DNA from: Collinsella sp. AF23-4AC
Lineage (GTDB): Bacteria; Actinomycetota; Coriobacteriia; Coriobacteriales; Coriobacteriaceae
Assembly: GCF_003462685.1 (NCBI RefSeq)
Contig: NZ_QRVE01000015.1
Location: 1 to 51,152, forward strand
Length of the DNA stretch: 51,152 bases
Direction of reading: 5' to 3'
Of this stretch, positions 1 through 11,426 are shown in pieces. Every line of letters begins with the position of its first letter. Positions within the stretch are counted from its first letter, which is position 1. The notes under the pieces are model-generated. The model made no database searches and was not told where the DNA came from. It saw only the letters and a program-made list of their open reading frames with translations. A program made the position numbers and the translations under genes.

Positions 1-446
1 AAGGAAAGGAATGGCAGGTCGCTTGCGGAGGCCGGGATATCCGTGATGCCGGAACTGCTCAGGGCGCGGCAATATGCGAGCTCCGCGTCATTGGTCTCTC
101 GGTCTCCCACGATGGACCCGGATTGGAAGCCTTCGTCCATGAGCGCGTAGTAGCTCTCGGCAGAATCGAGAAAGGCGGCGTCGGTTTGAGCGGCGAGGGC
201 GGCGTTCGCGTATCTTGCAAGCTCCGCGTCAGCTTGCTGCTCTGGAGATAGGTCTGTGCCGCTGGCCTGGGGCGCGCGCGGATTGAATGCGTCGACAAAG
301 CCCTGCATGCCCTGTTTCATAAAGAAGGGCCCGTAGATGGGTGAATTGAACGCAATGGGTACGGAAAAGGCTGCAGCGAGAACGAGCGTACAAATCCATA
401 CGGCCCTGTCTCTTAGGATTAGTTTGAGAAGAAGTCGACAGTACAT
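1..446 (-). CDS. ABC-2-like permease, partial (3' end outside window)
   Basis: The reading frame starts at ATG 446 and stays open to the window edge (148 codons seen). An AGGTG ribosome site lies about 8 nt upstream. Residues about 14-33 form one hydrophobic segment, followed by a long polar extracytoplasmic-looking stretch rich in Ala, Asp and Glu that ends in a Leu-Pro-Phe-Leu run. That plan (one N-terminal membrane segment, a large outside loop, then more membrane segments) is the same as each half of the permease at 1346-3568. It is therefore probably a third copy of the same permease module. It follows the ATPase gene by about 150 nt on the same strand. The substrate is unknown. Confidence 0.7.
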   Translation of the reverse strand, partial: MYCRLLLKLILRDRAVWICTLVLAAAFSVPIAFNSPIYGPFFMKQGMQGFVDAFNPRAPQASGTDLSPEQQADAELARYANAALAAQTDAAFLDSAESYYALMDEGFQSGSIVGDRETNDAELAYCRALSSSGITDIPASASDLPFLS

Positions 447-599: not shown

Positions 600-1340
600 C
601 TACCCGCCCTTTTCGTAGAGTCGCCGATACGTGCTTAGCGCACCCTCGGCGCGTCCGGCAGGCTTTGCGAAATGGGATCCAGGAGACTTCGGCGCAGCAT
701 CATCTTGCGGAATGCTTCTAATGAGCCTCCCATCCTTCAAAAACAGAATCTCATCGCACAGCCTATCGACCGAATCCAAGATGTGGGATGACATGATGAT
801 GCACGTACCAGAATCGGCCAGCTTCCTGAGAATCTCGGAATGCAAGTCCACCCTGCTGGGGTCGAGCGCGTTCATGGGCTCATCTAATAGAAGGTACCGC
901 GCGCCCGTCGCATACGCAATCGCCAGGGTAAGCTGCTGCTTCATGCCCTGGCTCAGAGTGCGGATCCTCATCTTCGCGAACTCGCCTATCTGCGTTTGTT
1001 CCACTATCTCTTCGATATCGCGAGCATGCGGCCACATATCGCAAACCATCTTGAGGTGATCTTCCGCACGCAATCCGGGATACAGCAGCGTCCCCTCACC
1101 AGGTGCATAGAAGATCATAGAACGGACCTCTCTCGCACCCGTACCCTGCACCTCATCCAGAACGATGCTCCCGTCCACGCGAGGACCCGGCAAACCTGCC
1201 ATCGCACGCAGCAACGTCGTCTTTCCATGCCCGTTCGGAGCGACGAGACCGTAGACCGTACCCGGGGCAAACTCAGCGTTCACCGAATCTACGAGCACCT
1301 TCTTTCCATAAGAGATCGTCAGCGTTTGAAGGTCAATCAT
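600..1340 (-). CDS. ABC transporter ATP-binding protein
   Basis: A 246-residue cytoplasmic ATPase that would drive the adjacent permeases. Visible motifs are Walker A APNGHGKT (34-41, where the usual first Gly is Ala and the usual Ala/Ser before the last Gly is His), signature LSQGMKQ (129-135), Walker B YLLLDEP (149-155) and the switch His186 in SSH. An upstream ATG at 1349 overlaps the permease stop as ATGA. The AAAGGGG ribosome site is about 9 nt before ATG 1340 but directly abuts ATG 1349, so 1340 is chosen. Overlap or near-overlap with the permease stop (1346) implies translational coupling. Family: multidrug/peptide-type ABC-2 ATPases; the substrate cannot be told. Confidence 0.85.
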   Translation of the reverse strand: MIDLQTLTISYGKKVLVDSVNAEFAPGTVYGLVAPNGHGKTTLLRAMAGLPGPRVDGSIVLDEVQGTGAREVRSMIFYAPGEGTLLYPGLRAEDHLKMVCDMWPHARDIEEIVEQTQIGEFAKMRIRTLSQGMKQQLTLAIAYATGARYLLLDEPMNALDPSRVDLHSEILRKLADSGTCIIMSSHILDSVDRLCDEILFLKDGRLIRSIPQDDAAPKSPGSHFAKPAGRAEGALSTYRRLYEKGG

Positions 1341-1345
1341 CGAGA

Positions 1346-3568
1346 TCATCCCCTTTCGATCTTTGGAACACTCAGGCGCACCATCAACGGAGATACGGCG
1401 CCCAAGACCACCAGCAGAGCGCCCGATGCGCCGACGACCTCTCCAAAAGGCATCGCGTTCGTCCCTCGCCCAAGGAACCCAATCGTCCCCACCTGGGAAG
1501 CGGGATCAAACGAGGCGAATGGAGCCAGCAGCGCGACGCCCATGCCCACGCTTTCAACATGAGCGCTCAACGAACCCAACACCAAGAGAACCGCGCAAAC
1601 CATTCCGGTAACAACGGGGTTGCGGCTAATCGCTGCTGTCAACGCAGCGACGACGGAAATCACGCCGTATGCCATGACCAGCAACGGAATACTGCACAAC
1701 ACCGCCTCCCCCACCATGGACGTTGTCGAAGCTCCCGCCCGAATGAGAGCGACGGGATACTCCGATCCACCCGCACCGTTCTTAATCACGGACACAACGA
1801 CAGCGGGAACCATCGACACCAAAAGCAGCACCAAGCCAAGCAGGAGAGCCAGCGCAACAGCCGTCAGAAAACGCACATGCGCTGTTGCGGGGATCTGGAG
1901 AACCAGAAGAGAACGACACTGCAGGTGGGTGCACGCGAGCGATGTGACAACCACGGGCAACAGCAAAAATAAGGAGGGAAGCGCTGCCTGGAGATACGAA
2001 AGGAGGATTAATGGGGGCATCTTCGTACTTAACTCGTAAACCTTGGGGTCCGGCAAGCTCGCGATCGACTCAAGCAGAAGGGCGCGCGCCTCCGCACGAG
2101 AAGGAGTCTCCGGCTCGATTCCGATCGATTGCAGGAGAGTCGCATCTGCCGCGCCCAGCTCACCTCGAGCGCGCTCGTACGTCGCAAGGCTTCGAAACCC
2201 CTCCGCAGGCATAGGCGCGTACACGAAACCCGAAAGAGCATCCCGCATGTCTTCCAGGGCCGCTTTGCCCTCGACGTCCATATTCGCAGCGTTCTGCTCT
2301 AGATACCGATCTATTGAACGGAGCTCCCTATCCCTATACCGAACAGCGGAAACGTTATCAGCGTCAGGAAACATCTCGACCAGAGCCGGGGCCAGCATCG
2401 TCGTCGACATTGCAATCGCGCATACGGCGAGGGTAGGAGAACGCAGGAGCAGTTTCCCCATCGTTCTTACGTATGCAACGGCGGAGGCACAAGCGCTCGA
2501 ACGAGTTGCCGTTCTCGATGCAGTGAAGGAACCTCTCTCAAGACAAATCGGGGATATCGGGCACGCGCAGCCGCTCTTTCCAGCAACGCAAAGCAGGCTA
2601 ATTGCCAGCACCTCGATCCCGATTGCGCATACGGGGGCAATCGCGCCACGCTCGAAGCAAAGTCCAGGCAGATTCACTATCTGCGTTGTCGGGTACGGGC
2701 TATAGGCGCCGACGGTCAACTCAGTGTTCGCATACGTAAGGGGATTCAACAGGGCGAACTCACGTAAAGCGATGGATCTTCCGTAATACCCGGGAACCAT
2801 CGTCACCCCCATCAGGGCACATACGAACACGATTCCAAGCGTAGGGTTATTGGCAATCTTCACGGCAAGGTGAACGACAAGCGAGATGAACGCTGCCACC
2901 AAGAATTGCAAGATGGCCGTCTGCGCGAACACCAGCCAAGCCGGTTTGATAACCGGAGTCGCATATTGAATGTAGCCTATCGGATAGAACGGCGAGCCCG
3001 GGCCATTCTTCACAAGCGCGGCGATTATCCCTGGAAGATTGATGGCGAGGACGGCAAGCATTGCAAAAACACTCGCCCATACGCTCGATGCAACAAGTCT
3101 ACCCAGCTCGCCCATCGGTGCCTGGATGATGAGCTTTTCACGTTTGTTAAGACGCGCGGCAAGGAACGAGACGGCAACGGCCGTTGCGACCCATAGCAAG
3201 TACTCCTTCGATCCGTCATAATAGGTGTACTCTCCATCCGATATCTGCAGAAACGGAAGTAGGGGAGAGAGCGGTGCCAAGATAAGACGTCCCGCGGCAA
3301 GAGGGTACAGAAGCGCGGGCATGCTTGATGAAGAGGTATAGACACCGTCCTCCCCCGCATTCACAAGCGCATCCGCATAGGATGCTGACAATTCCTGCTC
3401 AACACGGGTTATTCCCGACTCGAGGTATTCGACCCGTCCGTCGATGCCAGCCGCGCTCCTGAAGACGGGCAGAGCACAAAGAACCATCAACGCAACAACG
3501 ACAACACAGAGCGACCTGGAGGAGAGAAGCGACCTAAAGATCGCCTTCGAGATTTTGAGCATATTCAT
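1346..3568 (-). CDS. Large ABC permease made of two tandem copies of one module
   Basis: A 740-residue integral membrane protein with about a dozen hydrophobic segments. The start is ATG 3568, with AAGG 6 nt upstream; a longer frame opens at 3634 without a clear ribosome site. Each half has one N-terminal membrane segment (about 19-36 and about 378-398), a large polar loop, then a membrane bundle. The halves match without gaps in the bundle: KNGPGSPFYP at 187 and KNGAGGSEYP at 596, Pro179/Pro588, and NNP/RNP prolines at 242/651, all offset by exactly 409 residues. The protein is therefore a fused pseudo-dimer, and one ATPase gene follows immediately. A hairpin lies between it and the upstream peptide gene. 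No known family name is assigned with confidence; general role as ABC-2-type export permease is inferred. Confidence 0.8.
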   Translation of the reverse strand: MNMLKISKAIFRSLLSSRSLCVVVVALMVLCALPVFRSAAGIDGRVEYLESGITRVEQELSASYADALVNAGEDGVYTSSSSMPALLYPLAAGRLILAPLSPLLPFLQISDGEYTYYDGSKEYLLWVATAVAVSFLAARLNKREKLIIQAPMGELGRLVASSVWASVFAMLAVLAINLPGIIAALVKNGPGSPFYPIGYIQYATPVIKPAWLVFAQTAILQFLVAAFISLVVHLAVKIANNPTLGIVFVCALMGVTMVPGYYGRSIALREFALLNPLTYANTELTVGAYSPYPTTQIVNLPGLCFERGAIAPVCAIGIEVLAISLLCVAGKSGCACPISPICLERGSFTASRTATRSSACASAVAYVRTMGKLLLRSPTLAVCAIAMSTTMLAPALVEMFPDADNVSAVRYRDRELRSIDRYLEQNAANMDVEGKAALEDMRDALSGFVYAPMPAEGFRSLATYERARGELGAADATLLQSIGIEPETPSRAEARALLLESIASLPDPKVYELSTKMPPLILLSYLQAALPSLFLLLPVVVTSLACTHLQCRSLLVLQIPATAHVRFLTAVALALLLGLVLLLVSMVPAVVVSVIKNGAGGSEYPVALIRAGASTTSMVGEAVLCSIPLLVMAYGVISVVAALTAAISRNPVVTGMVCAVLLVLGSLSAHVESVGMGVALLAPFASFDPASQVGTIGFLGRGTNAMPFGEVVGASGALLVVLGAVSPLMVRLSVPKIERG

Positions 3569-3600
3569 CGCCAACCTTAACCTCATCCAGTCGGAACAGA

Positions 3601-3624
3601 GGGGCCGAACAAAATGCTCGGCCC
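3601..3624 (-). terminator. Hairpin between peptide gene and permease (attenuator-like)
   Basis: GGGGCCGA (3601-3608) can pair with TCGGCCC (3618-3624) around a 9-nt loop. On the minus strand no long T run follows, so it could be a weak terminator, a processing site or an attenuator that keeps peptide mRNA more abundant than transporter mRNA. This placement is common after small peptide precursor genes. Confidence 0.45.
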
Positions 3625-3644
3625 TTCCTCGCATCTAGTAGGTG

Positions 3645-3767
3645 CTATAGACAAATCTGGGAAGGAGGCATCGGGGTATCCGCAAAAGCGGGGGCTCCCG
3701 GCAGCAACAGACAAAGAGCGAGGCCGAGGAAAACCAAGAGCTTACACGACTTAACAGTACTGAACAT
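3645..3767 (-). CDS. Small secreted peptide precursor, 40 aa
   Basis: Reading the minus strand from ATG 3767 to TAG 3645 gives 40 residues. A GGAGAGG ribosome site sits just upstream. The product has a classic signal peptide: Lys6 and Lys9, a hydrophobic core at 10-22, a Pro-Gly turn, and an A-F-A cleavage motif (27-29). Cleavage there would release an 11-residue peptide, DTPMPPSQICL, with a single Cys. It is the first gene of the permease/ATPase operon and has a good promoter 36 nt upstream. This layout resembles peptide pheromones, bacteriocins or small exported ligands. I do not recognise the peptide. A chance ORF is the alternative, but ribosome site, signal peptide and promoter all agree. 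Confidence 0.6.
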   Translation of the reverse strand: MFSTVKSCKLLVFLGLALCLLLPGAPAFADTPMPPSQICL

Positions 3768-3802
3768 AATCCTCTCCAATCTAGAGGGGTTTCGGTTGCA
3801 GC

Positions 3803-3831
3803 ATACTGTGATTACTTGCCGGCAAAGTCAA
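3803..3831 (-). promoter_or_regulatory. Promoter of the peptide/transporter operon
   Basis: On the minus strand TTGACT (3831-3826) is followed after 17 nt by CAGTAT (3808-3803). This places a start site near 3796 and gives a leader of about 30 nt before the peptide ATG. The -35 box directly abuts the inverted repeat at 3832-3850. Confidence 0.5.
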
Positions 3832-3850
3832 TTTAACATAAACTGTTAAA
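3832..3850. promoter_or_regulatory. Palindromic operator candidate between divergent genes
   Basis: Perfect 7-bp inverted repeat TTTAACA-N5-TGTTAAA, in the divergent region between the peptide operon and the DUF2975/HTH pair. It touches the -35 box of the peptide promoter, so a bound dimer would block that promoter. The small HTH protein at 4410-4661 is the obvious candidate ligand, but this is inference. Confidence 0.45.
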
Positions 3851-3887: not shown

Positions 3888-4400
3888 ATGAGTTCCGACA
3901 ATCGCACTCCCCGGCTTCATTCCTTCCGCATCGCATGTGCGATAGCCTCTGCGGCCCTTTGCGCCACCGCCATCGCACAAGTGGCGTTCTCCTTAAAGCC
4001 AGCAATCGAAGTGCTCGACAACCCTGTAATTGCAGACTCCCCCGCGTATCCAGCCCTTGCGATCTCGACATTGGTCCCTGCCGTCATCGGTATCGCTACG
4101 ACCATCCTCAGCGCCGTTCTCGTGTGGACGATCAAGAGCGCAGACCCCTTCAAGAAAGGGTCTGCGACATGCTTGAAGGTGCTCGGCATTCTCTTCGTTG
4201 TTCAAGCTGCCACCAGCCTCTACGCCGGCTCACTCAAAACCTCCGTTTCGATGTTTGGCGGCGAGGGGGCCGTCGGCGCCCAAGAGATAGCTTCATCATT
4301 CGATTGGACCTCTCTGGTTCTCGGCATCGTCCTGTTCATGCTTTCCCAGCTCTTCTTGTACGCCCGAGAGCTGTACCTCGACTCCGACGAGATTGCGTAA
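3888..4400 (+). CDS. DUF2975-type four-helix membrane protein
   Basis: A 170-residue protein with four hydrophobic segments at about 11-33, 54-85, 97-117 and 138-160. A CGGAGG ribosome site lies 5 nt before ATG 3888. The C-terminal membrane segment ends in ARELYLDSDEIA, an acidic tail after the last helix that is typical of DUF2975 proteins (YoaS-like). Across Firmicutes and Actinobacteria such proteins are encoded beside a YozG-type HTH regulator, exactly as here with a 9-nt gap. The biochemical role of the family is not known. The divergent position opposite a peptide/ABC operon suggests a sensor or immunity role, which is inference. Confidence 0.75.
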   Translation: MSSDNRTPRLHSFRIACAIASAALCATAIAQVAFSLKPAIEVLDNPVIADSPAYPALAISTLVPAVIGIATTILSAVLVWTIKSADPFKKGSATCLKVLGILFVVQAATSLYAGSLKTSVSMFGGEGAVGAQEIASSFDWTSLVLGIVLFMLSQLFLYARELYLDSDEIA

Positions 4401-4409
4401 GGAAACGCC

Positions 4410-4661
4410 ATGCCCGTAATTGTTCGCCTCGACAAGATCATGGCCGAGCGAAAGATTTCCTCGAACGAACTTGCCGAAAGGATTGGAACCACGCCCGTGA
4501 ACCTGTCCCGTATTAAAAAAGGGCATATTCGCGGCATTCGCTTCAACACACTCGAGCAGCTATGCCTCGCCCTTCGTTGCCAACCCGGAGACCTTCTCGA
4601 AGTCATGAGCGAAGAGGATGCCCGAAAGGAGTTCGGACTCGATTGGTCCGCCGAGGATTAG
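4410..4661 (+). CDS. YozG-like HTH regulator (XRE, HTH_26)
   Basis: An 83-residue DNA-binding protein. The first 65 residues are a Cro/CI helix-turn-helix: IVRLDKIMAERKIS, then NELAERIGTTPVNLSRIKKG as the two core helices, then the recognisable IRFNTLEQLCLALRCQPGDLL ending. This matches the YozG/HTH_26 type that accompanies DUF2975 proteins. It follows the membrane protein by 9 nt, so the two are probably one operon. The stop codon TAG (4659-4661) is immediately followed, in the same reading frame, by an integrase fragment, so a recombination junction lies at this point. Confidence 0.85.
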   Translation: MPVIVRLDKIMAERKISSNELAERIGTTPVNLSRIKKGHIRGIRFNTLEQLCLALRCQPGDLLEVMSEEDARKEFGLDWSAED

Positions 4662-5387
4662 AGGGCGGTCGTACTCGCCCTGCACACGGGGATGCGAATC
4701 GGCGAGGTCTGCGGCCTTCGGTGGTGCGATGTGGATTTCGAGACGGGCCTGATCTCGATCAGACACTCGGTGGCGTACGCGAAGGGAATGGGTTCGTTCA
4801 TCAAGGACACCAAGACCCATGACGCCAGGGGTATCCCCATCGACCCGGTCGGCCTACTCCCCTTCCTGAAGGAGACCCACGAGATCGACTGCGGAAAGCT
4901 GCGCTTGCGCGGCCTTACCGGGGCGGTCGAGATCGGGGACTGCTACATCCTGTCGGAGCCGGGCGCGACCTTCGCGACGACAAGCTATATCCGCAGGGCG
5001 TTCAAGACGTTCTCGGAGACCAACGGCCTCATGGGCACCAACGACGAGCTGATCACGTTCCACGGCCTTCGCCACACGTTCGCAACGCAGTGGATCCGCC
5101 AAGGCGGCGATATCAAGGCGCTCCAATCGATCCTCGGCCACAAGGACGCCATGGCGACGCTCAACGTCTACGCCGATATCGAGCCCATCTCCAAAATCCA
5201 TAACATGCTGCGCGCCACGCCGTGCCTTTGGCGCGGGCACCTCGGGCCGAGGGTCGATCCGGGTCCCATGTTCCAACAGAGGATCCAGGAGTCCATCGAG
5301 ACGCTCCAGGCGTTCGGCTACGGCATCACCGAGCCGGACGACCGAAATATCGCCATACGCGACGTGAAGACGAACAGTTGGCTCTAG
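4662..5387 (+). pseudogene. Tyrosine recombinase/integrase, 5'-truncated
   Basis: Only the catalytic half of a phage-type integrase remains. From 4662 the frame reads straight into the start of the catalytic domain (...LALHTGMRIGEVCGLRW), with no N-terminal arm- or core-binding domain. Catalytic residues visible in the remnant are Arg in MRIGEV, the HGLRHTFAT box (His and Arg), His in LGHKD and the nucleophile Tyr in LNVYADIE. An ATG at 4692 could initiate a 231-residue product, but no convincing ribosome site is seen. The remnant is evidence that the DUF2975/HTH and transporter genes arrived on, or next to, an integrative element. The last 60 residues after the Tyr box do not look like a usual integrase tail. 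Confidence 0.8.
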
Positions 5388-5782
5388 CTCACCGAGTACG
5401 CGGCAGTGCTGGGCCCATCCCAACTGAGGTCACGGTGGTCCGATAGGGGCGCCGCCCGCGGCATGCGCCGCGGAGCGGTATCCCCTACCGAAGGGCGGGG
5501 ATGCCCTCCGCTTCCAGTTCGGAATCAGCCGTCGGAGGCGTTCGGCTGACTGCGGGAACGGCCTGTCCGCTCAATGTGTTCGGCTGAGATCGGAAATCAA
5601 CCCAACACGAGCCGGACACGCGCCAGACGGCTCTTCCCCGTACGGCCTTCCCCCTTACGCTCATGTTGCAGGCATGTAACGCCGCAGCGAGCGCGCCTTT
5701 TTTGCGCCAGACAGGTACAATGATGAACACTGTACCGTAGCGGAGCGCCCTCGCGCGCCGCAACCACGCGAAAGGGTTTCCC
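5388..5782. other. Intergenic stretch after integrase remnant
   Basis: No gene is supported here. It contains an imperfect hairpin with TAGGGG (5444-5449) facing CCCCTA (5482-5487) and a GC-rich palindrome inside it, two copies of TTCGGCTGA, and near the ACT-protein gene an inverted repeat GGTACA-N11-TGTACC (5714-5736) whose left arm overlaps a TACAAT -10-like box. An attachment site could not be recognised. Confidence 0.4.
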
Positions 5783-9608: not shown

Positions 9609-11426
9609 GTCGGCGTAGGTGAAGGTTGTAACGTCGAACATGCCCTCGGGGCGGATGCGGAGCGTCGGGATCACCGGCAGGGGCAGGAAAATGATGCCCA
9701 TGATGGGGTCGAGCGGCGGCTCAATACCCATGGCGCGCGCCTTGACCATAAAGTCGTCGTGCTGCGCGGCAACGTCCTCGGCCGTACCCTCGCTCATAAG
9801 GCCACCGAGCGCCAGCGGAATGCGCGCCACGACCTCGCCGTTGCGCACCAGCACGTGGCCGCCCTGGCCCACGGCCTCAACGGCAGCCATCATATCCGCC
9901 GCATTGTCGCCCACCACGCACACGTTGTGCGAGTCGTGGCCGATCGTCGAGGCGATGGCACCGCCCGTGATGGTGAAACCGCGCACCCAGCCGCGACCGA
10001 TATGCTTGCCGATCAGGCCCAGGCCAGCGGGGCCGTCGCCGTCGGCGCCCTCGGCCTGCAGCGACGCGCCGCGGCCATGGCGCTCAATCAGCATAATGCG
10101 ACGCAAGTCCTCGTCAGTCTCGGGACGAACCATGCCCGTGATGGCCTTGCCCGGCACCACGTCAATCACGGCCTCGCCCGGCTTAAAGGCATAGTCGAAT
10201 ACGTCGAGCGAAAGATTCGGCAGCTTAACGGAGGCGCGAAGCTCATCGGCAAGGGCCGCAACCTCGGCCATCTCGGGTGCATTCTCGCCCACAAAGGTGC
10301 CGTCCTGCGCCACCAGGGCACCGGCGGCATATACGCGATGCGGAGCCGTGGCAAACGTCAGATCATTGAGCACCAGCAGGTCGGCACGCTTGCCCGGGGC
10401 AATCGCACCGCGTAGCTCGTGCGGGTCGCGGCAGCCGTGATCCAGGCCAAACGCCTCGGCCGTGGAGAGGGACGCCATAGAGATGGCAACCACGGGGTCA
10501 ATGCCGGCCTCGATAGCTACACGGCAGGCGTTGTCGATCATACCGGTCGAAAGCGCGTCGGAGGGAGCACGGTCGTCGGTCGCAAAGCAGCAGCGGCGGG
10601 CACGGGCGGGGTTTTCCAGCAGCATCGGCGACAAGTTGGCCAGGTCATGGCTGCACGTACCCTCGCGCAGCATCACATACATGCCGCGGGATAGCTTGTC
10701 GAGTGCCTCCTCGGGAATCGTCGACTCGTGGTCGGCGATAATGCCCGCCGCGGCATAGGCGTTGAGGTCCTTTCCGGCAACGAGCGGCGCGTGGCCGTCG
10801 ACCTGCTTGGACGACGTCTGGTTGGCAGCATCGATACGAGCGCAGGTCTCGGGATCGGCCATAAAGACACCCGGCAGGTTCATCATCTCACCCAGACCGA
10901 AGACATCGCCCGGATACTCGGCAAAAAACGCCTGCATATCGGCGGCGGTAATGACGGCACCGGCCTGCTCATCGGGCAGCGCGGGCACGCACGAGGGCAT
11001 CATGTACTTGATGGAAATGGGCGCGCGACGGCCGTCCTCGATCATAAAGCGCAGGCCGTCGAGCCCCGCCACGTTGGCGATCTCGTGGCTGTCGGCAATG
11101 GCGGTGGTGGTACCGCGCGTCGCCGCCATGCGCGCATACTCAGCAGGGCGGATGTTCGAAGATTCGATATGCAAGTGCCCGTCGATAAAGCCGGGGGCAA
11201 GATAGCGGCCCTGGCAGTCGATGACTTCAGCCGCCTCGTAGGTACCAGCAGCGCCATCGCGACCGTCGTACAGCACGCCGACAATCACGCCGTCCTTGAC
11301 GGCAACGCTACCGGGCGCCACACGCTGGCCATACACATCGACAATCTGCGCATTGGCAAACAACGTGTCAACGGGCACGCGACCCTCGGCAGCGTCGATC
11401 ACAGACCTCATGACCTCAACGGACAT
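9606..11426 (-). CDS. ade: Adenine deaminase
   Basis: A 606-residue metal-dependent amidohydrolase that converts adenine to hypoxanthine and ammonia. Motifs seen: the metal-binding HLHIESS after FIDG, SHEIANV, VDGHAP and ADHES in order, as expected for the AdeC family, and the C-terminal adenine-deaminase domain. The frame is open upstream to 11606, but an AAAGGAG site 5 nt before ATG 11426 and the family start fix the start here. The gene fits the salvage of purines that the right half of the window degrades further. A 3' repeat element overlaps its stop. Confidence 0.92.
   Translation of the reverse strand: MSVEVMRSVIDAAEGRVPVDTLFANAQIVDVYGQRVAPGSVAVKDGVIVGVLYDGRDGAAGTYEAAEVIDCQGRYLAPGFIDGHLHIESSNIRPAEYARMAATRGTTTAIADSHEIANVAGLDGLRFMIEDGRRAPISIKYMMPSCVPALPDEQAGAVITAADMQAFFAEYPGDVFGLGEMMNLPGVFMADPETCARIDAANQTSSKQVDGHAPLVAGKDLNAYAAAGIIADHESTIPEEALDKLSRGMYVMLREGTCSHDLANLSPMLLENPARARRCCFATDDRAPSDALSTGMIDNACRVAIEAGIDPVVAISMASLSTAEAFGLDHGCRDPHELRGAIAPGKRADLLVLNDLTFATAPHRVYAAGALVAQDGTFVGENAPEMAEVAALADELRASVKLPNLSLDVFDYAFKPGEAVIDVVPGKAITGMVRPETDEDLRRIMLIERHGRGASLQAEGADGDGPAGLGLIGKHIGRGWVRGFTITGGAIASTIGHDSHNVCVVGDNAADMMAAVEAVGQGGHVLVRNGEVVARIPLALGGLMSEGTAEDVAAQHDDFMVKARAMGIEPPLDPIMGIIFLPLPVIPTLRIRPEGMFDVTTFTYAD

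What the first reader, a model, noticed from the sequence alone, without database searches (positions are those of the whole stretch)
3568..3850. Unannotated 40-aa secreted peptide heading an ABC-exporter operon
A 40-codon gene with ribosome site, clean signal peptide (A-F-A cleavage motif) and an 11-residue mature peptide with one Cys lies upstream of a permease/ATPase operon. It has its own TTGACT/CAGTAT promoter, an operator palindrome at the -35 box, and a hairpin between peptide and exporter genes. This looks like a small-peptide signalling or bacteriocin-type module, possibly self-exporting or self-immune. The link between peptide and exporter is inferred from layout.
Basis: partly seen in the sequence, partly recalled or inferred. 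Interest (0 to 1): 0.78.

Follow-up and report, generated by a model that had tools for sequence, protein, structure and literature searches.

The report
Broken bacteriocin-like gene beside ABC transporter
The "40-residue peptide" is the stump of a longer secreted protein from an unnamed family found in gut Coriobacteria, probably small weapons against related bacteria, whose presumed protective transporter genes stay while the weapon gene is often lost.

Summary
The 40-codon frame exists, but it is not a natural 11-residue peptide gene. In three related Collinsella genomes the same start continues to a 121-residue secreted protein with four cysteines in its mature part. The window copy has a 233-bp out-of-frame internal deletion, so its last three residues, including the one Cys, are a junction product. 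Among 13 copies of the locus (window plus 12 of 43 Collinsella genomes) the peptide gene is intact in 3, stop-interrupted in 1, internally deleted in 1 and absent in 8, while the ATPase is open in 13 and the permease in 12. A profile of the family finds 41 hits (20 loci) in 25 of 392 genomes of the class: signal peptide, DxVxDTY, YKxLxY, C-terminal YxW/Y. An ABC ATPase or its permease is next to it in 15 of 20 loci; the other five are tandem pairs. No Pfam, NCBIfam or PDB profile matches, and profile comparison with Lactococcin_972 fails. The layout (signal-peptide protein, large permease, ATPase) is that of lactococcin-972 operons, so I read it as bacteriocin plus immunity ABC, with frequent producer loss. 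Antibacterial activity is inferred, not shown.

The parts
3645..3767 (-). Truncated secreted-peptide gene (pep1 remnant), 40 codons; first 37 codons equal the intact 121-codon gene, last 3 follow a 233-bp out-of-frame internal deletion
3599..3627 (-). Hairpin between peptide gene and permease (no T-run; attenuator or processing element by inference), kept in 12 of 12 relatives
3803..3831 (-). Promoter-like TTGACT-N17-CAGTAT (weak; 8 of 12 consensus positions by my count)
3832..3850 (.). Operator-like inverted repeat TTTAACA-N5-TGTTAAA between divergent operons, identical in 12 of 12 relatives
1346..3568 (-). ABC permease (start uncertain), two homologous halves (duplicated permease fused)
600..1349 (-). 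ABC ATPase, 249 aa; best NCBIfam match the lantibiotic-protection ATPase TIGR03740, below its cut-off
1..446 (-). N-terminal 148 residues of a second ABC (permease-ATPase fusion, 604 aa in relatives), cut by the window edge; in 10 of the 12 relatives the genome also has a second family peptide (pep2)
3888..4400 (+). DUF2975-like membrane protein, 170 aa (20.6 bits, below gathering score 27), divergent
4410..4661 (+). HTH_26 (Cro/C1-type) regulator, 83 aa; homologues beside family peptides in L127 and L178

Best explanation
The window carries the decayed front part of a secreted bacteriocin-like protein gene (intact form 121 aa, about 92 aa mature, 4 Cys) at the head of an operon whose permease and ATPase most likely give self-immunity. 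SHOWN: truncation by an internal deletion; intact copies in relatives; an unannotated family with signal-peptide-like start and conserved core; linkage to one ABC subfamily across genera; loss of the peptide gene by several different lesions with retention of the ABC. INFERRED: the mature protein leaves by Sec (so the ABC is not needed for export), acts on the envelope of closely related cells, and the ABC clears it from the membrane or target; the divergent DUF2975/HTH pair regulates through the conserved palindrome; strains like the one of this window keep immunity after dropping the weapon. The deletion itself and the dead state of the window copy: about 0.95. Bacteriocin plus immunity function: about 0.55.
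For: Alignment of 13 loci: 3 intact, 1 with an in-frame stop at codon 7, 1 internal deletion (window), 8 without the gene by two different junctions (6 and 2); ATPase, DUF2975 and HTH open in 13 of 13, permease in 12 of 13; Fisher p 0.001 for peptide vs permease loss, ignoring relatedness. Family profile: 41 hits in 25 of 392 genomes, 9 of 151 genera, 20 loci after merging near-identical copies; ABC ATPase or its permease next to it on the same strand in 15 of 20, against 61-83 ABC_tran matches per genome in 4 genomes. Permeases at the 13 distant ABC-linked loci all fit one profile, 7 of the 13 not used to build it. Peptide and permease distances correlate, r 0.56, p 0.0007, 14 pairs, species history not removed. 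Two of 18 distant loci carry the HTH regulator at 53-57% identity, one divergently as here. Lactococcin-972-type operons have the same order: signal-peptide bacteriocin, integral membrane protein, ABC ATPase (PMC4004548, passages).
Against: No antibacterial activity is shown. No sequence relation to Lactococcin_972 (hhalign probability 1.5%, 3 members only) or to any Pfam/NCBIfam/PDB profile. One genome (G003) has an intact peptide and a frameshifted permease, which a self-immune producer should not tolerate unless that is a sequencing error or the second ABC suffices. Three loci have two-component genes downstream and one a LuxR-type regulator gene next to the ABC, which also fits a signal. 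Five of 20 loci have no ATPase within 3.5 kb, and 12 fetched loci have the permease without the peptide. Losses among close relatives are not independent. In the database most detectable copies are full length (813 of 931 member sequences; empty loci leave no protein and are not counted). In the commonest loss type the -10 region is gone too, so how the ABC is then expressed is unknown. AlphaFold models are of low confidence (pLDDT 40.5 and 51.7).
Confidence: 0.6

Rival explanations
1. Signalling system: the secreted protein is a pheromone or cue sensed by the ABC, the HTH regulator or neighbouring two-component systems, and loss of the signal gene is signal cheating.
For: Response regulator and HisKA genes directly downstream in L130, L133, L134 and a LuxR-type (GerE) protein gene beside the ABC in L131; divergent HTH regulator and conserved palindrome.
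Against: Two-component genes were identified at only 3 of 20 loci (only these three gene pairs were scanned); the mature part is long for a signal peptide and has a conserved core; bacteriocin loci often carry such regulators too (recalled).
Confidence: 0.2
2. The ABC transporter is the dedicated exporter of the peptide.
For: Neighbouring genes on one strand in 15 of 20 loci.
Against: Members start with signal-peptide-like stretches, many with an A-x-A-like site by eye; no C39 peptidase domain in the Pfam scan of permease and ATPase; ABC kept in 8 of 12 relatives without the peptide gene.
Confidence: 0.08
3. The 40-codon frame is itself a new functional micro-peptide created by the deletion and kept by selection.
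For: Signal peptide and start are unchanged.
Against: Its tail is out of frame and was matched by none of 9 database hits; database variants of the gene show many other disruptions, as expected for decay.
Confidence: 0.03
4. A secreted protein of other function (adhesin, enzyme inhibitor, envelope protein) whose ABC linkage reflects a shared regulon only.
For: No functional profile hit; the ABC subfamily also occurs without the peptide in 12 fetched loci.
Against: Linkage to one permease subfamily over several genera and correlated distances; one-sided loss of the peptide.
Confidence: 0.14

Closest known systems
Lactococcin 972 operons (lclA, membrane protein, ABC ATPase; PF09683)
   Same: [quoted passage not shown] PMC11161930, passages).
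   Different: No profile similarity, no PF09683 hit in the members scanned; motifs differ (DxVxDTY, YKxLxY versus GG-W, SxYxH); PF09683 was found in 3 of 246 genomes of the phylum, none of the three in this class.
Lantibiotic-protection ABC transporters (LanFEG type, TIGR03740)
   Same: Best NCBIfam match of the ATPase, 124 bits.
   Different: Far below the curated cut-off of 309.75; permease is a fused double permease. No search for a lanthionine synthetase was made.
Orphan bacteriocin-immunity ABC transporters of enterococci (Mr10EFGH)
   Same: Immunity ABC shared among different bacteriocins and found without any bacteriocin gene in some strains (PMC10598978, passages).
   Different: Different peptides and host; there orphans are few, here 8 of 13 copies have no peptide gene and 2 more have it broken.

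Membership tests
Lactococcin 972 family (PF09683; TIGR01653 recalled) | Profile match to PF09683 | tested here: not met
   No Pfam family at E<=10 for the intact protein; PF09683 not among the 5 families that any of 13 members matched; nothing of this kind in NCBIfam
Lactococcin 972 family (PF09683; TIGR01653 recalled) | Profile-profile similarity to family members | tested here: not met
   hhalign A5 vs 3 PF09683 members: probability 1.5%; only 3 members were at hand
Lactococcin 972 family (PF09683; TIGR01653 recalled) | Signal peptide, followed by membrane protein and ABC ATPase genes | tested here: met
   signal peptide by eye and hydrophobicity only
Lactococcin 972 family (PF09683; TIGR01653 recalled) | Beta-sandwich fold (recalled) | tested here: inconclusive
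   Low-confidence, strand-rich models; Foldseek no hit with E<=0.001
Lactococcin 972 family (PF09683; TIGR01653 recalled) | Lipid II binding / septum inhibition | not testable with these tools
   needs protein
The Coriobacterial DxVxDTY family defined here | Profile A1 match at E<=1e-3 with signal peptide and DxVxDTY...YKxLxY core | tested here: met
   the three intact relatives match at E 5e-35 to 8e-35 (one such sequence is a row of A1); the window remnant keeps only the signal part and 8 residues, so it is a remnant of a member
LanFEG lantibiotic-protection ABC (TIGR03740) | ATPase above curated cut-off | tested here: not met
   124.2 vs 309.75 bits

The most novel reading that the evidence does not exclude
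Coriobacteriales carry a new, unnamed class of secreted bacteriocins, single-gene loci with an immunity ABC and tandem-pair loci without one, and many gut Collinsella strains are ex-producers that dropped the weapon by several different lesions but kept the immunity transporter.
Probability: 0.45. Interest if true: 0.72.

Novelty: new variant of a known kind. Interest (0 to 1): 0.55.

Why it matters
Collinsella is a common human gut genus (recalled) and, in the papers I could search, no bacteriocin of this type is described for it (listings only). A peptide family without any profile, tied to one ABC subfamily, is directly testable, and the strain-to-strain pattern (weapon lost, transporter kept) would be a natural data set on producer, immune and sensitive types in the gut.

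Tried and rejected
Plasmid or phage home of the cluster: no tblastn match of the permease in 72,556 plasmid records nor of the intact peptide in 50,697 phage records; the ATPase alone matches at least 5,000 plasmid records, all under 60% identity. Island boundary: a 74-nt direct repeat flanks the module 7,629 bp apart in L034, but it is a dispersed repeat, up to 10 copies per genome in 21 of 42 genomes, so it is no evidence of an attachment site. Defence system: in PADLOC the peptide, permease and DUF2975 protein match nothing and the ATPase and HTH give only partial matches. Structure: two AlphaFold jobs with nine-row alignments gave pLDDT 40.5 and 51.7; the Foldseek list of the better one (best E 0.32) is meaningless at that confidence and I draw nothing from the names in it. 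I did not hand the divergent members from the fetch from genomes to structure prediction, because its stated rule does not name such loci. dN/dS of the permease 0.34-0.61 over 7 comparisons, few changes, weak support for purifying selection. Count of database variants: for pep1, 118 of 931 member sequences lie in clusters that are not full length; for pep2, 148 of 3,654 (sums made by hand; test). The contrast leans a little towards pep1, which had two searches; alone it is 96 of 909. Fragments, chimaeras and sequencing errors are in both counts, and no other control gene was searched. Rows dropped before counts: near-identical pep1 (4) and pep2 (14) hits were merged to one locus each and tandem hits to one locus, giving 20 loci from 41 hits; L046 duplicates L132; L137 (internal stop) was left out of the distance test. 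The pep2 copy of G019 (L181) has no ATPase within 3.5 kb, and those of G031 (L183), G001 (L184) and G012 (L180) lie near contig ends; pep2 was still counted as ABC-linked from the other copies. The peptide-free loci were scanned only for frames of at least 60 aa picked by a script.

Full report
WHERE IT IS. The window's own assembly is not held.

THE OBSERVATION. On the minus strand the order is palindrome (3832-3850), weak promoter-like pair, ATG at 3767, 40 codons, hairpin (3599-3627), permease, ATPase, then the front of a second ABC gene cut by the window edge. All of these elements are really there; the promoter pair is weak by consensus and the hairpin is no standard terminator because no T-run follows.

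WHAT THE 40 CODONS ARE. I aligned the upstream region of the permease in the window and the 12 genomes. In G018, G001 and G003 the same start continues to 121 codons: signal peptide, then DTPMPPSQESSQCALVEPLGYTDDVVDTYWSYSC...SYKTISYRNGY...MCSCGVLG...KWQFVYSTY (G018). The window lacks 233 bp inside it; 233 is not a multiple of three, so codons 38-40 (ICL) come from another frame. G031 has an in-frame stop at codon 7. Six genomes (G008, G002, G005, G006, G011, G035) lack everything from behind the -35-like box to the hairpin, with one-base differences between some of them, and two (G004, G019) lack the gene by a different junction. So 3 of 13 are intact, 2 broken, 8 empty, while ATPase, DUF2975 and HTH genes are open in 13 of 13 and the permease in 12 of 13, the exception being G003, which has an intact peptide gene. 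The protein database holds full-length clusters (813 member sequences) and many differently disrupted ones (118) for this gene, and 3,506 against 148 for the second peptide of the same operon (sums mine). Most detectable copies there are thus full length; empty loci leave no protein and cannot be counted.

A FAMILY. The intact protein finds distant relatives in other genera of the class (best new E 7.5e-10), several of which lie next to relatives of the permease found in a separate search. Thirteen sequences were aligned (A1). The second peptide behind the fused ABC (pep2, 117-aa frame; present in 10 of the 12 relatives) is a member too, at 19-22% identity to the first. A profile search of 392 genomes of the class gave 41 hits at E<=1e-3 in 25 genomes and 9 of 151 genera; 13 of the hits, at 9 loci, were not among the alignment's rows or close copies of them. 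In 246 genomes drawn from the phylum, the convincing hits were again in this order (best E 1e-32); hits in three genomes of other classes (E 0.0015-0.009) lie in frames of 180-805 aa and are marginal. The larger alignment of 24 sequences keeps a V and a C-terminal Y throughout and, in 90% or more, M1, a P before the cleavage site and the Y of YK; the consensus core is DxVxDTYxxFxC...TYKxLxYxxxY...GxxxxxxCxYxx(W). No Pfam, NCBIfam or PDB profile matches with any weight.

LINKAGE. Merging near-identical copies and tandem hits, the 41 hits are 20 loci. In 15 an ABC ATPase, or the permease of a permease-ATPase pair, is the neighbour on the same strand. With 61-83 ABC_tran matches per genome in four genomes and about 2,000 genes each (recalled), chance would give fewer than two; a binomial with 8% gives 4e-13, though related species are not independent. 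The other five loci (L133, L135, L174, L175, L177) hold two family genes in tandem (one L174 copy has a stop) and no ATPase within 3.5 kb. At the 13 distant ABC-linked loci the permease belongs to one subfamily, seven of them unused in building the profile; peptide and permease distances correlate (r 0.56, p 0.0007, 14 pairs; shared species history can cause part of this). The window permease is a fused duplicate of that permease: its halves match each other (E 1.8e-5) and the single-permease profile. The ABC subfamily also occurs without the peptide: 12 fetched loci with a permease and no family hit. The HTH regulator has homologues at 2 of 18 distant loci, beside the peptide in L127 (divergent, as here) and in L178; L178 also has a DUF2975-like gene (17.6 bits, below cut-off). 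Three loci have response regulator and HisKA genes downstream and L131 a LuxR-type regulator gene next to the ABC.

HOW IT MOST LIKELY WORKS. The precursor probably leaves through Sec by its own signal peptide (no predictor was run); the ABC therefore is more likely protection than export. The order of genes is that of lactococcin-972-type operons as described for Streptococcus iniae Sil (PMC4004548, passages seen) and Staphylococcus shinii (PMC11161930, passages seen). Lactococcin 972 itself binds lipid II (PMC8538875, passages seen). Membership in that family is not met by sequence and the fold could not be tested, so I claim 'works like', not 'is'. Immunity ABCs left without bacteriocin gene are known in enterococci (PMC10598978, passages seen). 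The repeated loss here fits a costly weapon and a still useful shield, or else a shield that also serves the second peptide or foreign ones. The window strain would be such an ex-producer for peptide 1; whether its second peptide gene is intact lies beyond the window edge.

RESULTS AGAINST. The G003 genome (intact peptide, frameshifted permease) argues against simple self-immunity unless it is a sequencing error. Regulators near some loci leave signalling open. Five of 20 loci lack the ABC and 12 fetched loci have the ABC without the peptide. In the commonest loss type the -10 region is lost as well, so ABC expression there is unexplained. I know of no activity data.

NOVELTY. Paper searches for Collinsella with bacteriocin and immunity terms, with lactococcin 972, with 'bacteriocin gene', and for Coriobacteriales secreted peptides (listings only, open-licence papers only) showed no title or abstract start that describes this family. 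The kind (signal-peptide bacteriocin plus ABC) is known; the peptide family, its tandem-pair form and its loss pattern appear new.

Noticed in passing
window 4692-5387 (+): A 231-aa frame matching only the later part of the phage integrase profile (PF00589 from profile position 36), right behind the HTH gene and kept in relatives L031 and L034: a recombinase relic.
   Followed up: partly
L047, L186, L187, L188, L190 behind the second ABC gene: At the start-codon junction behind the fused ABC, pep2 is replaced in these five loci by another gene (MIGKSYAK..., secreted or anchored by eye), and in L037, L040, L189 by neither: the cargo at this slot is exchanged. One database protein (P0055) joins the front of the other gene to pep2.
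   Followed up: partly
L133, L135, L174, L175, L177: Family genes in tandem pairs without ABC neighbour. Small hydrophobic proteins lie beside some of them (161 aa with 5 TM in L135; by eye 169 aa in L174, 151 aa in L175 and 123 aa in L177, the last two on the other strand), possible immunity proteins of a two-peptide type.
   Followed up: partly
window 5533-5606; L034 4847-4920 and 12476-12549: A 74-nt dispersed repeat, up to 10 copies per Collinsella genome (21 of 42 genomes), flanks the whole module as a direct repeat 7,629 bp apart in L034.
   Followed up: yes
L042 (G003) near 10191: One-base length change frameshifts the permease at about residue 117 although both family peptides are intact there.
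   Followed up: partly
L132 7756-8184 and L173 5359-5790: A second secreted or anchored protein of about 142 aa follows the peptide in both loci and looks alike in the two; the L132 one has no Pfam match above cut-off.
   Followed up: no
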